DNA from: Myxococcales bacterium
GTDB taxonomy: Bacteria > Myxococcota_A > Polyangia > Polyangiales > Polyangiaceae
Direction: 5' to 3'
Assembly: GCA_947473045.1 (NCBI GenBank)
Contig: CANJCO010000001.1
Location: 1-64,000 of the forward strand
Length of the DNA: 64,000 nt
The notes under the pieces are model-generated. The model was not told the origin of the DNA. It ran no database searches and saw nothing but the letters and a program-made list of their open reading frames with translations. Position numbers and translations under genes: made by a program. Shown in pieces: positions 42,906-50,559 of this stretch (its first letter is position 1; each line of letters starts with the position of its first letter).

Positions 42906-44906
42906 ATGACAACCCGCATGCGCGCAAAGTCCGCGGCTCTGGCGCTGGTCGCACTGACGCGCGTAGCGCTGGCGCAGGCGCAGGAGCGCGAAGAGGCCGA
43001 AGATGTAACGGTGCGAGGGTCGCGCGCGGGCGGCTTCGTGAGCGAAGCGACCGAGGGCGAGGCGGCGCGCGAGCTGACCGACGCCGCGACGCTCGTCGAG
43101 GCCATGCCCGGAGTGCACGTGAGGCGTCAGGGCGCGGACGACGGCTTCGCGACGCTCTCGATTCGCGGTTCGTCGTCGTCGCAGGTGAACGTGCTGCTCG
43201 CCGGCGTGCCGATGTCGGGCGCCTCGGACCCTTCGGTCGACCTCGGCTCGATGCCGCTGTGGCCGGGGGCGCGCGCGCGCGTCTACCGGTCGTTTGCGCC
43301 GGCCTCGCTCGGTCAGGGCTCACTGGGAGGTACCCTCGTCCTCGATCTGCCCACGTCGCGAATGATGGAGCGGTCAGAAGTGTGGAGTGCTGTGGGGTCT
43401 TTCGGGGCTGCGCGGCTGCGCGCCGGCGACGTGCGCGATCTGGGAGGCGGCGCCCAGCTCATCACCGCGCTCGCGGCCGCGCGGGCGGACGACGACTTTT
43501 CGTACGCGAATCCGCTCCATCAGCCTCCCTCGCTCGATCCGCGCGAGACGCTCACGCGAGACAACTCCCAGCACGCTTCGGCGAGCGGTCTGGTGGGGCT
43601 CGTGCTGCCGTTTGCGCTGACCGGCGGACGCCATGGCTCGCTGCGCATCACCACGATCGCGCAGGCGCGGCAGCAGCATTTGCCCGGCACCATTTTCACG
43701 CTGACGCCGCGGCAGACCCTGAACATGAACCGCGAGCTGATGAGCCTCGAAGCGACGCTGGGCGCGGGCGACGGCGCCGTGTTTTCGAGGCTCTGGTCGA
43801 AGCGCGAGGCGCGCGCGTTCGTCGACGGTGAGGCGACCGGAGCGGGCGCGGCGTTGGCTGACACGACGATCGTGGGCGCCGGCGTTGCGGCTGGATGGCG
43901 CGGGCGGCCATCGTCAAAAATTCGGGTCGAAGCCGTCGTCGACGCCAAGGCAGAGCGCTTCGCTCCGGGACGCTACGTCGGCCCGTCGCCAACCGCGGGC
44001 GCCACGCGCACTGCAGTGGGAAGTGGCGTCGACGCATCCTGGGATGTTCGTCCGTCGCTCTCGCTGTCGGCCTCGGGTCGCGTCGACGCATGGCACGACG
44101 CATCCGTCGATGCCGCGATCGCTCCCGCGACGGAGGTGCGTCCCAGCGCGCACGTCGGCGCGGAAGTGCACCTGCCTTCAGTCGCCGTGGGTGCGCACGC
44201 GGGCGTGCTCGCTCGACCTCCCAATTTCGCCGAGCGCTTCGGCACCTCCGGGGGCGCGCTTGCCTCGCCCGAGCTTCAGACCGAGTCGGCGTCGACGTTC
44301 GACCTCGGCGCGCGATGGGCGGGGCGCGCAGGCCGGCTGCGCGTCAGCGCCGAGGCGGTCGCGTTCGCGTCGTGGGCGCGCGAACTGATCACCTATGTGC
44401 TCGTCTCGGCGCGGGGCGTGCCGAAGGCCGTAAACATCGGCGAGGCGCGAATCCTGGGGCTCGAAGCCTCCCTCGCCGCGCAGCTCGGCGGCGCCCGTTT
44501 GCGTGCATCTTACACGGGACTTTCTACCGCGAACTTGTCGGCCTGTTCGGCCACGTTGTGTCCTTCGCTGCCGGGCAGGCCCGCCCGCGATCTGTCGGCG
44601 GACGTCTCATACGCGCTCGGTCCGGTGACCGTTCGCTACGGGGTCGACGCGCTCGCCGGGATGATGGCCGACGCCGCCGCCACGATCGACGTGCCTGCGC
44701 GGGTGCTGCAGTCGGCCGGCCTCCGCGTCGGGCTCGGTCGCTTCGCGGTGGTCGCGCTCGACGTCCGAAACCTCTTCGACGTGCGCACCGGCGAGTACGC
44801 GCAAGGTTTCAACGGCACGGTCGCGACTTACCCGATCGGCGACGCGCTCGCGTTTCCGCTCCCGGGGCGCAGCGCGCTCGCGAGCCTGCGGGTCACCGGA
44901 CCGTGA
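42906..44906 (+). CDS. TonB-dependent outer-membrane receptor (BtuB/CirA-like)
   Basis: 666 residues. Signal peptide to about residue 25, then a plug domain (DAATLVEAMPGVHVRRQGADDGFATLSIRGSSSSQVNVLLAGVPM, GTLVLDLPTSR) and a 22-stranded barrel. The C-terminal strand ends in SLRVTGP, without the common terminal Phe. The canonical TonB box is not clear; EREEAEDVTVRGS near the N terminus may serve. The substrate could be cobalamin, haem or a siderophore; candidates for the inner-membrane importer are elsewhere in the window. Confidence 0.88.
   Translation: MTTRMRAKSAALALVALTRVALAQAQEREEAEDVTVRGSRAGGFVSEATEGEAARELTDAATLVEAMPGVHVRRQGADDGFATLSIRGSSSSQVNVLLAGVPMSGASDPSVDLGSMPLWPGARARVYRSFAPASLGQGSLGGTLVLDLPTSRMMERSEVWSAVGSFGAARLRAGDVRDLGGGAQLITALAAARADDDFSYANPLHQPPSLDPRETLTRDNSQHASASGLVGLVLPFALTGGRHGSLRITTIAQARQQHLPGTIFTLTPRQTLNMNRELMSLEATLGAGDGAVFSRLWSKREARAFVDGEATGAGAALADTTIVGAGVAAGWRGRPSSKIRVEAVVDAKAERFAPGRYVGPSPTAGATRTAVGSGVDASWDVRPSLSLSASGRVDAWHDASVDAAIAPATEVRPSAHVGAEVHLPSVAVGAHAGVLARPPNFAERFGTSGGALASPELQTESASTFDLGARWAGRAGRLRVSAEAVAFASWARELITYVLVSARGVPKAVNIGEARILGLEASLAAQLGGARLRASYTGLSTANLSACSATLCPSLPGRPARDLSADVSYALGPVTVRYGVDALAGMMADAAATIDVPARVLQSAGLRVGLGRFAVVALDVRNLFDVRTGEYAQGFNGTVATYPIGDALAFPLPGRSALASLRVTGP
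44503..44515. repeat. Near copy of the GTGCA-N3-TGCAC palindrome
   Basis: GTGCATCTTACAC, one mismatch, inside the TonB-dependent receptor gene. The following bases cgggac match those after the copy at 52826. Confidence 0.5.
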
Positions 44907-46038: not shown

Positions 46039-47838
46039 TTACGGCTCGGGTTCAGCGGTCAGGACCTGAAGAAACGGCACCAGCGCGTCGGCGTGCGACT
46101 GGGCAAACTCGGGCAGCCATCGCTCGGTCGCTCCTACGGCGCGCGGGTCCGACATCGGGAGACCGGCAGTGCCGTAGTTTCGCGCCGCCTCCTGCAAGGT
46201 CGCGAGCGTCCCGCCGTGGCCGTACGGAGCGCTTCCGGCGACCCCCCGAAGCGGCGCAGTCTTGAACGACCCGAGCTGCGCGGCATGCGCGACCAGCGAG
46301 GACGAGGGTTGCACGAACTCGCTCGACGCGAGGCGAGCGATGCCGTCGATTCGGCCCCGGTCGGCCTGTCCATCTTGACGCCCCGTCGGGTAACGGTCGG
46401 GATGAAAGGCGTCATCGGTCAGGCGGGGGCCCCAGTGACACTGGGCGCACCCGTTCACAAAAAACCCCGAAAGTGAGCTCTTCTCGTCGGGCGACAGGGC
46501 GCCGAGATCGCCGCCGATGTAGGCATCGAGCCGGTTTGGCTTCACCCGCAAGGTGCGCTCGTAAGCGGCTATTGCCTTGCCGACGTTCATGAATATGGTC
46601 GTCGTCGCCTGCCTGTCACCCGGGCTCATGGCCTCCCACGTCGGATCTCCTGGCCTGCCCGCGGACGGAAAGCGCTGCACGTCCGCGAGATCGGGGAGCG
46701 GACCGAACACGCTCGCGTAGGCGCCCGGATAGTGAGCCGCGACGGCGTGGGCGACAAAGAGCCTCGTGCCCCCGAATTCGCGCGCGTCCTCGAGCGGGCC
46801 GAGGGCCTGCATCCAGAGCGTGTCGGCGCGGCCATCCCAGAGCTGCCAGCGCGCGTGCGCGGCGAGCGCGACGCTGGGCGAGTTGCGGTCGACCGTCGCG
46901 ACGCCGCCGGTCGATTGGGGCAAACCGTCCTGCAAATTGCGGGTCGCATCGTGACACGATCCGCACGCGACCTTGCCGGACGGCGAGAGCCGCACGTCCT
47001 GAAAGAGCGCCTTGCCGAGCGCCGCAGCGGCCGGATCATCGGCCTTCGCGTTGCTTGGCTCGGCGGGCGGCGCGCCTGGCAACGTCATGTCGTGCAGAAG
47101 GCTCCACTGGTTTCGTGTGAATACGCCGTCGAAGCGCTCCAGCGGCGGGTAGGCAGGTTCGGGGAGTCGATCAAGGGCGGCGAGCTCCTGACGCAGACGA
47201 AGCTCGAGCAGCTGCGGATCGGGATCATGCAAATAGCTGCGAACGGTCATGGTGCGCGTGTCGACCAGCACCACCAGCGGCAGAGAGCCGCGACCCGGAT
47301 CCACGCTTCCAAACGCATAATTCGGGTCGATCGCGATGGCGTCCGGCGCGTCGATCAGCGCTCGGTACGACGGAATATCCGCAGTCTGCGGCGGATCGTT
47401 GTCGCGGTCCGAGACAAGCAAATCGAGCCATCGAAGCCGCGGGCCGATATCGAGGGCCCCCAGCTCGCCGGTGTGCGCGAGGTGCCAGCGGCAGGTGCCG
47501 CACCAGGGAGCGCCCACGCGCACCACCAGCAGGCGCGCGCGCGGAGCGCATGGCTCGTAGTAGTCGCGCAGGGCGACCTTCCCCGGCAGGCTGTCGAACG
47601 ACCAATCCGGCAACGTGCCGCCGATGGCTACCCTGTAGTCGGCGACCGGGTAGCCTCCGTCGACCGAGCCTTCGTCGGAGCAAGACAAAGGCCCCGGCCC
47701 ACCGTCGCGAGCGCCGCCGTCCGCACGGAGTGCTCCGTCGTTGTCTGAGCTGCCGCTGCACGCGACGATGGCGATCAGCGCCGCCGCCGCCCGCGCAGGA
47801 CGCCATCGCGATCGGAGCGCAGCTGCAGGGCCAACCAT
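46039..47838 (-). CDS. Thioredoxin-domain / di-haem cytochrome c peroxidase (MauG/MbnH-like) fusion lipoprotein
   Basis: 599 residues from ATG 47838. Signal peptide with lipobox IVAC (Cys27). Residues about 70-230 form a thioredoxin/TlpA-like domain with GAPWCGTCRWHL (redox Cys near 113 and 116). Residues about 260-595 form a di-haem peroxidase with CGSCH (about 292-296) and CAQCH (about 464-468). MauG/MbnH proteins of this fold oxidise Trp or Tyr on partner proteins; others reduce peroxide. The fusion to thioredoxin is unusual. It diverges from a small CX3C-repeat protein. Confidence 0.88.
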   Translation of the reverse strand: MVGPAAALRSRWRPARAAAALIAIVACSGSSDNDGALRADGGARDGGPGPLSCSDEGSVDGGYPVADYRVAIGGTLPDWSFDSLPGKVALRDYYEPCAPRARLLVVRVGAPWCGTCRWHLAHTGELGALDIGPRLRWLDLLVSDRDNDPPQTADIPSYRALIDAPDAIAIDPNYAFGSVDPGRGSLPLVVLVDTRTMTVRSYLHDPDPQLLELRLRQELAALDRLPEPAYPPLERFDGVFTRNQWSLLHDMTLPGAPPAEPSNAKADDPAAAALGKALFQDVRLSPSGKVACGSCHDATRNLQDGLPQSTGGVATVDRNSPSVALAAHARWQLWDGRADTLWMQALGPLEDAREFGGTRLFVAHAVAAHYPGAYASVFGPLPDLADVQRFPSAGRPGDPTWEAMSPGDRQATTTIFMNVGKAIAAYERTLRVKPNRLDAYIGGDLGALSPDEKSSLSGFFVNGCAQCHWGPRLTDDAFHPDRYPTGRQDGQADRGRIDGIARLASSEFVQPSSSLVAHAAQLGSFKTAPLRGVAGSAPYGHGGTLATLQEAARNYGTAGLPMSDPRAVGATERWLPEFAQSHADALVPFLQVLTAEPEP

Positions 47839-48006
47839 GATGTCGAGCGGACACGATACCGCACCGCCGCCGTCGTGGCCGCGCGAAGGCGTCCGGGCGA
47901 CGGCAGACGGCAACTTGACGAGCCATGCCGCTCGGTGGGACGCTCGAGGGGTTGACCGTTCCGGCGACCGCTCGCCGCCCCCTCACCCGCTCACGGAGTA
48001 CCGCTC

Positions 48007-48246
48007 ATGACGCACTCGATCCGCTTGTCTTTCGTGGCCGCTGCGCTCACCCTGGGTACGCTTTGTTTCGGTGTGGTCGGGCCGGCGTCGGCTTCCACCG
48101 GCGACGAGACGCCCAACGCGGCCGACTGCGCATCAAGCTGCGCGTCCATCCAGGCCCACTGCGCGCAAGGCTGCGGCAGCAACGCCACCTGCGTGAAGAA
48201 CTGCGCCGACATGGTCTCGCGCTGCACAGCCGCCTGCCCCAAGTGA
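48007..48246 (+). CDS. Small secreted protein with four CX3C pairs
   Basis: 79 residues. Signal peptide to about residue 30 (ending ASAS). The mature chain of about 49 residues has eight Cys at 41, 45, 52, 56, 62, 66, 73 and 77: four CX3C pairs at intervals of 6, 5 and 6. This is a twin helical-hairpin pattern like small Tim chaperones or metal-binding Cys helices. No family recognised. It lies 168 bases from the divergent thioredoxin-peroxidase fusion gene, a possible partner for its disulfides. Confidence 0.75.
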   Translation: MTHSIRLSFVAAALTLGTLCFGVVGPASASTGDETPNAADCASSCASIQAHCAQGCGSNATCVKNCADMVSRCTAACPK

Positions 48247-48334: not shown

Positions 48335-49483
48335 ATGACCCAGTCGATGCCCGGTAACAACGCACAACAGCCCGCCGGCGCGGGCATTTCACTCACGGGT
48401 GGCGCGGCCATCCTGGCCCCCATTCAGGCCTTCCCGAACGGCGTTCCTTCGAACGCGCTCGTGCTGATTCCGCTTGGCGCCAACGGCGCACCCGTCGAGA
48501 CGCAAATCGTCGCGGGTCCGGTTGCGCTCAAGATGGAGGAAGTCTGGAAGCTCCTCGGGTTCAACGGCCCGGCAGTTCAAGTGCAGGACGACCAGGGTCG
48601 CCCGATCGCCATCGGCCTCGAAGACCTGCTCGGCGGCCTCGAGAAGCACTACGAAGAAGACGCGAACGATCTCGATCGCGGGCGCATTTTTGCGCAGGAG
48701 CTGATCAAGTACAGCCGCTTCGAGAAGGCCGAGAAGATCCTCGCGAAGGTCGTCGCCCTCGGCGGCGGCGGCGAAGACTGGCTCGCGCTCGGCGTGGCCC
48801 AGCTGCAGCAGGAGAAGTGGGACAAAGCCGAGGGCACCCTCAAGGGCGCGCAGAACCTCATGAAGGACAACCCCTTCCCGAGCCTGCACCTCGCCAAGGT
48901 CGCTTCGGGCAAAAGAGACAAGGCGGCAGAGCGCGAGCACGCAGAGCGCGCCGTGTCGATCGCGCCCAACTCGGTCGACGCGTGGGCCTACCTCACCAAC
49001 GCCATGCGCGAGCAGCTCGGCGAAGAAGACGGAATCAAGCGCATCGAAGAGCTCGCGGCCACGCCCGTAAACGCCAAAACGGCGGCTCCTTTCGTCGCGC
49101 TTCAGGGCTTTTACGCCACCGACGAGTCGACGCGCGACAAGGCGATCGGTTTCGCGAAAAAGGGCGTCGAGCGCGCCCCCGACGACGCCCTCGCGCTGCT
49201 GTGCCTGTCGGCCCTCTACGGGCAGGCCGGCAAGCTCGACGAAGTCATCAAGCTCCTGGCGCCGTACGAGGCCGCAATGCTGCGCGACGTGCGCCTCGCC
49301 CACAACTACTTCGAGGCGCTCTTCCAGGCGCGCGACATGGCGAAGGTCACCGCGCTGCTCAACAAGCTCGCGACCAGCCCGAGCAAGGAAGTGAAGCAGT
49401 TCGCGATCGAGCGTTCGCGCGCCATCTCGCAGATGCTCGCGCAGCAGCAGCAGGCCCTCGCCGCGACCTCCGCAACGAGCTAA
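48335..49483 (+). CDS. TPR-repeat protein
   Basis: 382 residues, cytoplasmic (no signal). The N-terminal part (about 15-95) is a distinct non-repeat domain, followed by six or so TPR-like helix pairs (FAQELIKYSRFEKAEKILAKVVALG; LALGVAQLQQEKWDKAEGTLKGA; AKKGVERAPDDALALLCLSALYGQAG). It is a scaffold of unknown partner. A strong terminator follows. Confidence 0.85.
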   Translation: MTQSMPGNNAQQPAGAGISLTGGAAILAPIQAFPNGVPSNALVLIPLGANGAPVETQIVAGPVALKMEEVWKLLGFNGPAVQVQDDQGRPIAIGLEDLLGGLEKHYEEDANDLDRGRIFAQELIKYSRFEKAEKILAKVVALGGGGEDWLALGVAQLQQEKWDKAEGTLKGAQNLMKDNPFPSLHLAKVASGKRDKAAEREHAERAVSIAPNSVDAWAYLTNAMREQLGEEDGIKRIEELAATPVNAKTAAPFVALQGFYATDESTRDKAIGFAKKGVERAPDDALALLCLSALYGQAGKLDEVIKLLAPYEAAMLRDVRLAHNYFEALFQARDMAKVTALLNKLATSPSKEVKQFAIERSRAISQMLAQQQQALAATSATS

Positions 49484-49557: not shown

Positions 49558-50559
49558 TCAGCGCGCGCGGCGTCGCAACAGGGCGATAAACAGCGGGCCT
49601 CCCACGAGCGCCGTGATCGCGCCCACCGGCGGCTCGCGATGAACGAGATGAAAGAGACCGCGACTCGCGGCGTCGCAGGCGACGAGCACCGCCGCGCCGC
49701 CGAGCAGCGAGGCGGGTAGAAGCCGGCGCGCGTCGGAGCCTACGAGGCGGCGCATGGCGTGCGGAACGATGAGCCCGACGAAGCCGATGAGTCCCGTAGT
49801 GCTCACGATCGCCCCTACGATCAGCGAGCTGGCGACGAACACGCGGCGCTCGAGCCTTCGCACGTCGACCCCGAGGTTGGCCGCGGCCTCATCGCCGAGC
49901 GCGAGCAGATTGAGCCGGCCCGCGTCCACGAGCAGCACTCCGACGCCCAGCGTCACATAGAGCGCGACGAAGGCGATGACGCTGGGGCTCTGAACATCGA
50001 GAAATCCCATCAGCCAGAAGAGCAGCTCCTGCGCCTTGTTCGCCGAAACCAGGGTCTTTGCGAACGTGATGGCGGCCGAAGCGATGGCGTTGACGACCAC
50101 GCCCGCGAGGAGCACCGGCTCACTGCCGCGGCGGCCGGTGGCGCGCGCCATGCCATAAACAAGCGCCGTCGCCGCGAGACCCGAGGCAAGGGCGACGAGC
50201 GGCACGAGCGAGGCGCCCCAAAAGGCGACGCTGCCGAGCCCGAGCAAAATGGCGAGGGTCGCCCCGAGCGCTGCGCCGCCGGAGACGCCGAGCACATACG
50301 GCTCGGCGAGCGGGTTTCGCAGCACAGCCTGAAACACAACGCCAACAGCGGCGAGCCCGCTGCCCGCGATCGCGCCGAGAATCACGCGCGGAAGGCGTAG
50401 CCCGACAACGATGTCGCGGTCGACGGAGAGCGGGTCGCGGAGAGCCACGACAAGAGACGCGTTGCCGCTGCCGACGGCGAGGCCGACGATCACAGCTCCG
50501 GCGAGCGACAACGTCAGCAGGGCGAGCCACGGGGCGACGCGCGGCCCGGCTGCATTCAT
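49558..50559 (-). CDS. FecCD/BtuC-type ABC importer permease
   Basis: 333 residues, about ten hydrophobic helices. Family motifs: LRLPRVILGAIAGSGLAAVGVVFQAVLRNPLAEPYVLGVSGGAALGA, GRLNLLALGDEAAANLG and TGLIGFVGLIVPHAMRRLVGSDARRLLP (the coupling helix to the ATPase). It imports cobalamin, haem or iron chelates. It overlaps coaX by four bases but has no ATPase or binding protein beside it; suitable candidates lie at 39.6 and 0.2 kb. Confidence 0.93.
   Translation of the reverse strand: MNAAGPRVAPWLALLTLSLAGAVIVGLAVGSGNASLVVALRDPLSVDRDIVVGLRLPRVILGAIAGSGLAAVGVVFQAVLRNPLAEPYVLGVSGGAALGATLAILLGLGSVAFWGASLVPLVALASGLAATALVYGMARATGRRGSEPVLLAGVVVNAIASAAITFAKTLVSANKAQELLFWLMGFLDVQSPSVIAFVALYVTLGVGVLLVDAGRLNLLALGDEAAANLGVDVRRLERRVFVASSLIVGAIVSTTGLIGFVGLIVPHAMRRLVGSDARRLLPASLLGGAAVLVACDAASRGLFHLVHREPPVGAITALVGGPLFIALLRRRAR

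What the first reader, a model, noticed from the sequence alone, without database searches (positions are those of the whole stretch)
48007..48246. Secreted 49-residue mature protein with four CX3C pairs
Eight Cys in perfect C-x3-C pairs (spacings 6, 5, 6) suggest helical hairpins, either disulfide-linked as in Tim/CHCH proteins or loaded with metal. The gene diverges from the thioredoxin-peroxidase fusion, which could oxidise or reduce it.
Basis: partly seen in the sequence, partly recalled or inferred. Interest (0 to 1): 0.55.

Follow-up and report, generated by a model that had tools for sequence, protein, structure and literature searches.

The report
Exported disulfide-zippered two-helix mini-protein
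A bacterium of the myxobacterial kind makes a tiny exported protein whose eight evenly spaced cysteines very probably zip two helices together, a build known from some animal toxins that also turns up in other bacteria, where its job is still unknown.

Summary
The ORF and its layout are real: window 48007-48246 (+), signal peptide plus about 50 residues, Cx3Cx6Cx3Cx5Cx3Cx6Cx3C. AlphaFold2 gives two helices joined by a GSN turn; a gammaproteobacterial look-alike gives the same with pLDDT 95. The spacing is mirror-symmetric, so nested disulfides 1-8, 2-7, 3-6, 4-5 are expected. A separate test agrees: in a lipoprotein found by its N-terminus in 138 of 177 genomes of the order, 91 of 113 scorable tails keep all eight Cys at template spacing, and 14 of 15 two-Cys losses remove exactly a nested pair. 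This favours disulfides over metal thiolates. The link to the thioredoxin-peroxidase fusion is not conserved in the 29 other loci inspected, although a genus mate lacks both genes at this site. P0001 resembles the other hairpins in Cys layout alone, so common descent is unproven. Closest builds: neurotoxin B-IV, acrorhagin I, vanabins; among bacteria, gallocin A (one disulfide). Job: my bet is an ultra-stable exported scaffold; secreted effector is the main alternative.

The parts
48007..48246 (+). P0001, exported 79-aa protein with eight Cys in four CX3C pairs
   Evidence: ORF, ribosome-binding site, GC3, exact layout
47995..47998 (+). GGAG ribosome-binding site, 8 bases before the ATG
   Evidence: sequence read directly
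48007..48093 (+). Sec-type signal peptide (residues 1-29, AxA site); no twin arginine, no lipobox
   Evidence: inspection of the translation; no signal-peptide program available
48118..48174 (+). helix 1 (mature residues 9-27) with C12, C16, C23, C27 on one face
   Evidence: AF2 model, DSSP; ideal helical-wheel angles within 60 degrees
48175..48183 (+). turn, mature residues 28-30 (GSN)
   Evidence: the C4-C5 loop is the variable part in the lipoprotein tails
48184..48231 (+). helix 2 (mature residues 31-46) with C33, C37, C44; C48 just after it
46039..47838 (-). divergent gene: thioredoxin-like domain (WCGTC) fused to a di-haem MauG-type peroxidase, lipobox by inspection; a neighbour, partnership not shown
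   Evidence: not paired with hairpin ORFs in 29 other loci
48335..49483 (+). conserved TPR protein, used as the anchor for synteny

Best explanation
P0001 is exported by the Sec route and folds in the oxidising periplasm or outside the cell into a two-helix hairpin zipped by four nested disulfides (mature C12-C48, C16-C44, C23-C37, C27-C33; each pair of positions sums to 60). Shown: the ORF, its layout, and the same layout in exported proteins of other bacteria. Predicted: the helices. Inferred from pair losses in other proteins: the pairing. Inferred only: the job. I think it most likely acts as a chemically inert, protease-resistant scaffold whose freely varying outer helix faces bind another envelope or extracellular molecule. 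The same layout serves elsewhere as the C-terminal tail of a lipoprotein found through most of the order. It is probably not a metal store and not a dedicated substrate of the neighbouring thioredoxin-peroxidase.
For: AF2 from 5 sequences: pLDDT 86.4 (92-95 in the three middle ten-residue blocks), helices 9-27 and 31-46; look-alike L251: pLDDT 95.4 in the best of five models (the fifth 50.9), helices 2-19 and 23-39. All four Cys of each helix lie within 60 degrees on an ideal wheel. Lipoprotein tails, found by N-terminus only: 91 of 113 keep all eight Cys at template spacing; exact loss of C4+C5 in 10 and of C3+C6 in 4, plus one 7-Cys relative lacking only C3. By genus, 8 of 9 two-Cys losses are nested pairs against 4/28 expected, binomial 1.4e-6; with only losses at span 37-38 plus the counterexample, 4 of 5, p=0.002. 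Stand-alone look-alikes with a signal peptide by inspection: L025, L167, L251 and L354, L165.
Against: No disulfide was measured; AF2 does not model the bonds and I had no coordinates for S-S distances. The pairing evidence comes from another protein family, and with the Cys held fixed 31 of 200 shuffles of P0001 score at least as well against that family, so homology is unproven. One counterexample, L428 (fragmented genome G031), lacks C1+C2. Genera are not fully independent, and some C4+C5 losses go with a shortened loop. Twelve lipoprotein copies end at a stop without a full tail, so the tail is dispensable there. No conserved neighbourhood points to a job. The best sequence relative found is 32% identical, and none of the 107 other family genomes searched has a close one.
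Confidence: 0.58

Rival explanations
1. Metal-thiolate protein: the reduced Cys ladder binds Cu(I), Zn or another soft metal, as in copper storage proteins, whose Cys-bearing helices enclose Cu(I).
For: CX3C steps on a helix suit soft metals (general knowledge). The nearest homologue of the neighbouring fusion (L112; 61% identical) has a metallothionein-like ORF in its flank.
Against: Sec-type signal peptide by inspection, whereas exported Csp1 proteins use Tat (PMC7558416, passages); one His and one Met in the mature part; Cys are lost in nested antiparallel pairs in lipoprotein tails; no Pfam family matches.
Confidence: 0.1
2. Redox partner: the divergent thioredoxin-MauG protein oxidises or reduces P0001, which acts as a disulfide or electron carrier, in the manner of vanabins that reduce vanadium, or needs it to mature.
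For: Divergent neighbours; in the same-genus genome G111 the esterase and TPR genes abut and both genes are missing at that site, so the two may have come or gone together. Vanabins share the disulfide-array build and act as V(V) reductases with some reversible disulfides (PMC9486056, passages). [quoted passage not shown]
Against: Matches to the fusion, many to the peroxidase part only, occur in 68 of 177 order genomes, but 0 of 29 other loci inspected have a hairpin ORF in flanks of up to 1.5 kb. Short hairpin proteins elsewhere have no such neighbour that I recognised.
Confidence: 0.1
3. Secreted effector used against prey or competitors, an analogue of animal helical-hairpin toxins, plant alpha-hairpinins and the bacteriocin gallocin A.
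For: Several of the nearest solved structures are such exported peptides: acrorhagin I Z 5.9, anopheline anti-platelet protein Z 5.4, neurotoxin B-IV Z 4.2; B-IV again for L251 (Z 4.2, rmsd 2.0 over 41 residues). Gallocin A shows that bacteria do use a disulfide-stabilised helical hairpin to kill. P0001 is stand-alone and of sporadic occurrence.
Against: All fold matches are weak (best Foldseek E 3.6), and unrelated helical proteins score as well (an encapsulated-ferritin-like protein tops the list); a shared build shows no function. The commonest use seen here is a tail on a lipoprotein. No export cassette or immunity gene was recognised beside it. Net charge of the mature part is -1.
Confidence: 0.16
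4. Precursor of a modified peptide (radical-SAM or MNIO type) whose Cys are enzymatically altered.
For: Weak hit to TIGR04117, Cys-Xaa-Xaa-Xaa repeat radical SAM target, E 0.024.
Against: 14.7 bits against a cut-off of 50; none of the four neighbouring proteins scanned is a radical SAM or MNIO enzyme.
Confidence: 0.03
5. Chance ORF, not a gene.
For: Small; no match in the only other genome of the genus held.
Against: Good ribosome-binding site, high GC3, signal peptide and a layout not reached in shuffles.
Confidence: 0.03

Closest known systems
Neurotoxin B-IV of a nemertean worm (PDB 1VIB, Pfam PF07822 Toxin_13)
   Same: Two helices in a hairpin cross-linked by four disulfides (PMC6410017, PMC11722136, passages); almost the same Cys spacing, Cx3Cx6Cx2C-x10-Cx3Cx6Cx3C, read off the alignment
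   Different: Animal toxin with a longer loop; no significant sequence match (E 0.28 for the profile; 2 of 35 members, best 0.072); no evidence that P0001 is a toxin
[quoted passage not shown]
   Same: Bacterial exported peptides of 42 and 60 residues modelled as alpha-helical hairpins, with an intramolecular disulfide confirmed by experiment (PMC10100652, passages)
   Different: One disulfide per peptide, GG leader and ABC export, immunity gene alongside; P0001 has eight Cys and a Sec signal. No sequence comparison was made
Vanabins of sea squirts (PDB 1VFI)
   Same: Disulfide arrays along a helix-helix interface in place of a hydrophobic seam (PMC13348028, passage); weak fold match Z 3.9 and 3.8
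   Different: 18 conserved Cys and nine disulfides, metal-binding Lys/Arg, V(V) reductase; P0001 has 8 Cys in the mature part
Acrorhagin I of a sea anemone (PDB 6UX5, as named)
   Same: Two helices and four disulfides (PMC11722136, passage); top of the VIA list for P0001, Z 5.9, rmsd 5.4
   Different: One disulfide joins a helix to a loop; metal chelation by His proposed for its activity; 10% identity
CHCH and small Tim proteins; plant alpha-hairpinins
   Same: Helical hairpin held by Cys pairs facing each other across two helices (CHCH abstract in the listing; rest recalled)
   Different: Two disulfides and one Cys pair per helix (recalled) instead of four expected disulfides and two CX3C pairs per helix
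Copper storage proteins Csp1/Csp3
   Same: Many Cys on helices
   Different: Four-helix bundles loaded with Cu(I), Tat-exported if exported; P0001 has two helices and a Sec-type signal

Membership tests
Disulfide-stabilised helical hairpin (structural class) | two helices joined by a short turn | tested here: met
   AF2 models, (prediction only)
Disulfide-stabilised helical hairpin (structural class) | disulfides across the two helices | tested here: inconclusive
   Mirror-symmetric spacing, and nested pair losses in other proteins with the layout; no measurement on P0001
Pfam PF07822 Toxin_13 (neurotoxin B-IV-like) | profile match at the family cut-off | tested here: not met
   P0001 has no Pfam hit up to E 1
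Vanabins | 18 conserved Cys, nine disulfides | tested here: not met
   8 Cys in the mature part
CHCH / small Tim | one Cys pair (CX9C or CX3C, definition recalled) per helix | tested here: not met
   two CX3C pairs per helix
Alpha-hairpinins | Cx3C-Xn-Cx3C with two disulfides (definition recalled) | tested here: not met
   four CX3C pairs
Gallocin-type class IIb bacteriocins | GG leader, two peptides, immunity gene | tested here: not met
   Sec-type signal by inspection, single small gene between the fusion and TPR genes
Copper storage proteins (Csp) | four-helix bundle with many Cys; Tat signal in exported members | tested here: not met
   two helices, no twin arginine by inspection, no Pfam match
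TIGR04117 Cys-Xaa-Xaa-Xaa radical SAM targets | 50-bit model cut-off | tested here: not met
   14.7 bits
Tail of the order-wide lipoprotein (group B here, unnamed) | eight-Cys hairpin layout | tested here: met
   17.6 bits, E 0.0011 at Z=5000 against a profile of 89 tails without P0001; not above Cys-fixed shuffles (mean 14.7, SD 2.6; 31 of 200 reach it), full shuffles at most 3.9
Tail of the order-wide lipoprotein (group B here, unnamed) | N-terminal lipoprotein domain (A3) | tested here: not met
   the search with A3 hit two contig-end fragments in this genome, on C95 and C14, not P0001

The most novel reading that the evidence does not exclude
Bacteria of several phyla hold an undescribed class of exported mini-proteins folded by a four-rung disulfide zipper instead of a hydrophobic core. 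Stand-alone members such as P0001 are released as effectors on neighbouring cells, convergent with animal helical-hairpin toxins, and the same unit was fused as a tail onto a lipoprotein kept through most of an order of myxobacteria.
Probability: 0.15. Interest if true: 0.75.

Novelty: new variant of a known kind. Interest (0 to 1): 0.42.

Why it matters
Helical hairpins with four disulfides were known to me from animals only, and the listings and passages I saw of an open-access library show no bacterial one; the bacterial case found there, gallocin A, has a single disulfide per peptide. If the zipper is confirmed, it gives a 40-residue bacterial fold needing almost no hydrophobic core, with variable outer faces: useful as a scaffold and as a test of how often this build arises independently. 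The pair-loss pattern makes the connectivity directly testable.

Tried and rejected
Single-protein scan of genome contigs: 64 stretches matched a pattern, none was confirmed. tblastn against plasmids: one hit, E 0.3. phmmer of P0001 against PDB: none up to E 10. PHROGs: P0001 only a weak hit to an uncharacterised family (E 0.014), weak hits also for L251 and L167. Pfam: the look-alike L167 has sub-threshold hits to DUF6520 (19.8 bits, cut-off 25.4) and T4 Spackle. NCBIfam scan of 35 hairpin domains: none. Shared neighbourhoods among nine loci with short hairpin proteins: besides the hairpins, one 75%-identical gene in L064 and L066, 5-6 kb from the hairpin gene, and a few 27-32% similarities; no common context. 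Promoter and terminator scan: nothing found; it covers sigma-70 type only. Literature for the spacing: five papers, none on bacteria by title (passages of two read; three seen in the listing only). Other searches were seen as capped listings.

Considered and dropped: metal store, peroxidase substrate, RiPP precursor, chance ORF (see rivals). The raw pattern count (139 of 183 genomes) is not used as evidence, because many hits are Cys-rich repeats or low-complexity DNA and the reversed control also hits often. Likewise: of 118 and 120 loci held, 71 and 38 have an uninterrupted frame with the layout, but only 6 and 1 have exactly eight Cys in it (6 and 3 with at most nine). The odd frame in L344 was set aside, and the frames of L225 and L316 overlap competing ORFs.

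Alignment A1 was chosen by its Cys, so its invariant Cys prove nothing, and its score for P0001 includes P0001 itself; one search was run to avoid this and shows that only the layout is shared.

Dropped before counting: 10 of 140 places listed were not fetched (G147, G148, G150, G151, G051, G069, G049, G033, G029 and the second of G153). Of 130 fetched, 17 have no scorable tail: 5 run off a contig, 12 end at a stop (one of these with 3 Cys). Of 113 scored, six labelled by the script as single losses (four of C1, two of C4) keep eight Cys with a one- or two-residue shift, and L428, labelled as loss of C5, really lacks C1 and C2.

I lowered the best explanation from 0.62 to 0.58 and interest from 0.45 to 0.42, and raised effector from 0.14 to 0.16 and redox partner from 0.08 to 0.10.

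Full report
What is there. Window 48007-48246 (+) encodes a 79-residue protein with a GGAG ribosome-binding site 8 bases before the ATG, GC3 0.85, a Sec-type signal peptide by inspection, and a mature part of about 50 residues with eight Cys in the layout Cx3Cx6Cx3Cx5Cx3Cx6Cx3C. The pattern is found once in the window and never in 100 shuffles. In the whole genome the looser pattern occurs twice with no hit of the reversed control; the second hit is in a lipoprotein-like ORF on contig C41 (L408). The genus mate G111 has three such hits (L405, L407, L409), all in lipoprotein-like ORFs; L405 is related to L407 and to L408.

Fold. AlphaFold2 on the mature protein with four look-alikes gave mean pLDDT 86.4 and helices at 9-27 and 31-46, the turn being GSN. 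A look-alike from a Lysobacterales genome (L251), run with six others, gave 95.4 and helices at 2-19 and 23-39; one of its five models was poor, 50.9. All four Cys of a helix fall within 60 degrees of each other on an ideal wheel. Mature Cys positions 12, 16, 23, 27, 33, 37, 44, 48 are mirror-symmetric: 12+48, 16+44, 23+37 and 27+33 all give 60. This is what a hairpin with four rungs needs.

Connectivity test. Many genomes of the order carry a lipoprotein whose extreme C-terminus has this layout. I built an alignment of its N-terminal domain only (A3) and searched 177 order genomes: 138 have it. I fetched 130 of 140 places (30 loci) and read the tails (recount). 113 have a scorable Cys tail. 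91 keep all eight Cys at template spacing, allowing one to three residues between C5 and C6 and a free loop between C4 and C5. Six more keep eight Cys with a one- or two-residue shift. Ten have lost exactly C4 and C5 (genera g59, g20, g21, g33, g36, g1, g8), among them the window's own genome (L520) and G111 (L522). Four of one genus (g54) have lost exactly C3 and C6, residues that are apart in sequence, and a genome of the same family (L475) has lost C3 only. One (L428) lacks C1 and C2, against the rule. So 14 of 15 two-Cys losses are nested antiparallel pairs; by genus 8 of 9, against 4/28 by chance, binomial 1.4e-6; counting only losses at span 37-38 plus the counterexample, 4 of 5, p=0.002. 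Genera are related and some C4+C5 losses come with a shortened loop, so these figures are guides. In 62 of 113 the frame ends one residue after the last Cys, in 37 two residues after; P0001 ends two after. Twelve copies end at a stop without a full tail, so the tail is dispensable in some lineages.

Reach. Seven loci hold an open frame with exactly eight Cys in the stretch: L167 (a deltaproteobacterium) and L251 (Lysobacterales), both signal peptide plus hairpin and little else; L226 (Myxococcales) and L235 (Acidobacteria), both lipoprotein-like; L225 (Acidobacteria, start uncertain); L283 (an archaeon, after a hydrophobic stretch); and L354 (a phage-like contig, signal peptide plus hairpin). 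L316, a viral contig, has a nine-Cys version. A profile search of 235 phylum genomes matched 33 at E 0.001 or better, 22 of them in the window's own order. The relationship of P0001 to these is one of layout: against a profile of 89 lipoprotein tails without P0001 it scores 17.6 bits, E 0.0011 for 5000 proteins, but 31 of 200 versions with Cys kept and the rest shuffled score at least as well. Its best sequence relative is L025, 32% identical, E 6.5e-5. Descent from one ancestor is therefore open.

Neighbourhood. [quoted passage not shown] Matches to it, many to the peroxidase part only, occur in 68 of 177 order genomes. I inspected the 30 loci returned, flanks up to 1.5 kb: apart from the window's own, none of 29 has a hairpin ORF. 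The TPR gene downstream is conserved (29 of 31 family genomes). In G111 the esterase gene abuts it with neither the fusion nor P0001 between them; G111 has a 46%-identical fusion elsewhere. Of the other TPR loci none shows the esterase beside it, so gain and loss cannot be told apart. The two genes may thus have come or gone together here, which leaves room for a local partnership, but nothing beyond proximity supports it. Nine loci carrying short hairpin proteins elsewhere share no common context.

Comparison with the known. No Pfam or NCBIfam family fits at its cut-off. Fold searches return only weak matches, several of them helical hairpins held by disulfides: acrorhagin I (Z 5.9), anopheline anti-platelet protein (Z 5.4), neurotoxin B-IV (Z 4.2) and vanabin2 (Z 3.9) for P0001; B-IV (Z 4.2, rmsd 2.0 over 41 residues) and vanabin2 (Z 3.8) for L251, below an unrelated ferritin-like protein (Z 4.8). 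Unrelated helical proteins score equally, so this shows a common arrangement only. [quoted passage not shown] B-IV has four disulfides across two helices (PMC6410017 and PMC11722136, passages); its disulfide pairing was not checked. [quoted passage not shown] So disulfide-held helical hairpins are not new to bacteria; a four-rung one I did not see in any listing or passage. The listings were capped and subscription papers are largely absent from the library.

Verdict. The job is unknown; my bet is an inert exported scaffold, with secreted effector as the most interesting alternative.

Noticed in passing
L050, L410-L539 (order-wide; own genome split over G000 C95 and C14): An unnamed lipoprotein found in 138 of 177 order genomes, almost always one copy per genome, with two further Cys in its N-terminal domain and a hairpin tail that some lineages lack.
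   Followed up: partly
L080 4781-5779 (+), L155, L159: Long arrays of the 11-residue unit Cx3Cx6, which would make extended Cys-studded helices.
   Followed up: no
L112 84-366 (-): Metallothionein-like ORF in the flank of the closest homologue (61%) of the thioredoxin-MauG fusion.
   Followed up: no
L409 3-1641 (+): Ser/Thr-kinase-like ORF, a TPR-like ORF, then a hairpin lipoprotein in a row; ORFs related to the middle one lie beside the lipoproteins of L405 and L408. Domain names are by inspection.
   Followed up: partly
L354 5155-5346 (+): Exported hairpin protein between a regulator-like and an integrase-like ORF (by inspection) of a phage-like contig, a possible cargo gene.
   Followed up: no
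L167 303-1451 (+): The deltaproteobacterial hairpin protein follows an OmpA-family gene.
   Followed up: no
window 42906-44906 (+) and 49558-50559 (-): TonB-dependent receptor of the vitamin B12 type and a FecCD-type permease (by inspection) flank the region, a possible B12 or iron uptake locus.
   Followed up: no
L090 2620-3400: In G073 a MauG-type ORF also stands divergent to the TPR gene, separated by a repeat array and no hairpin ORF.
   Followed up: partly
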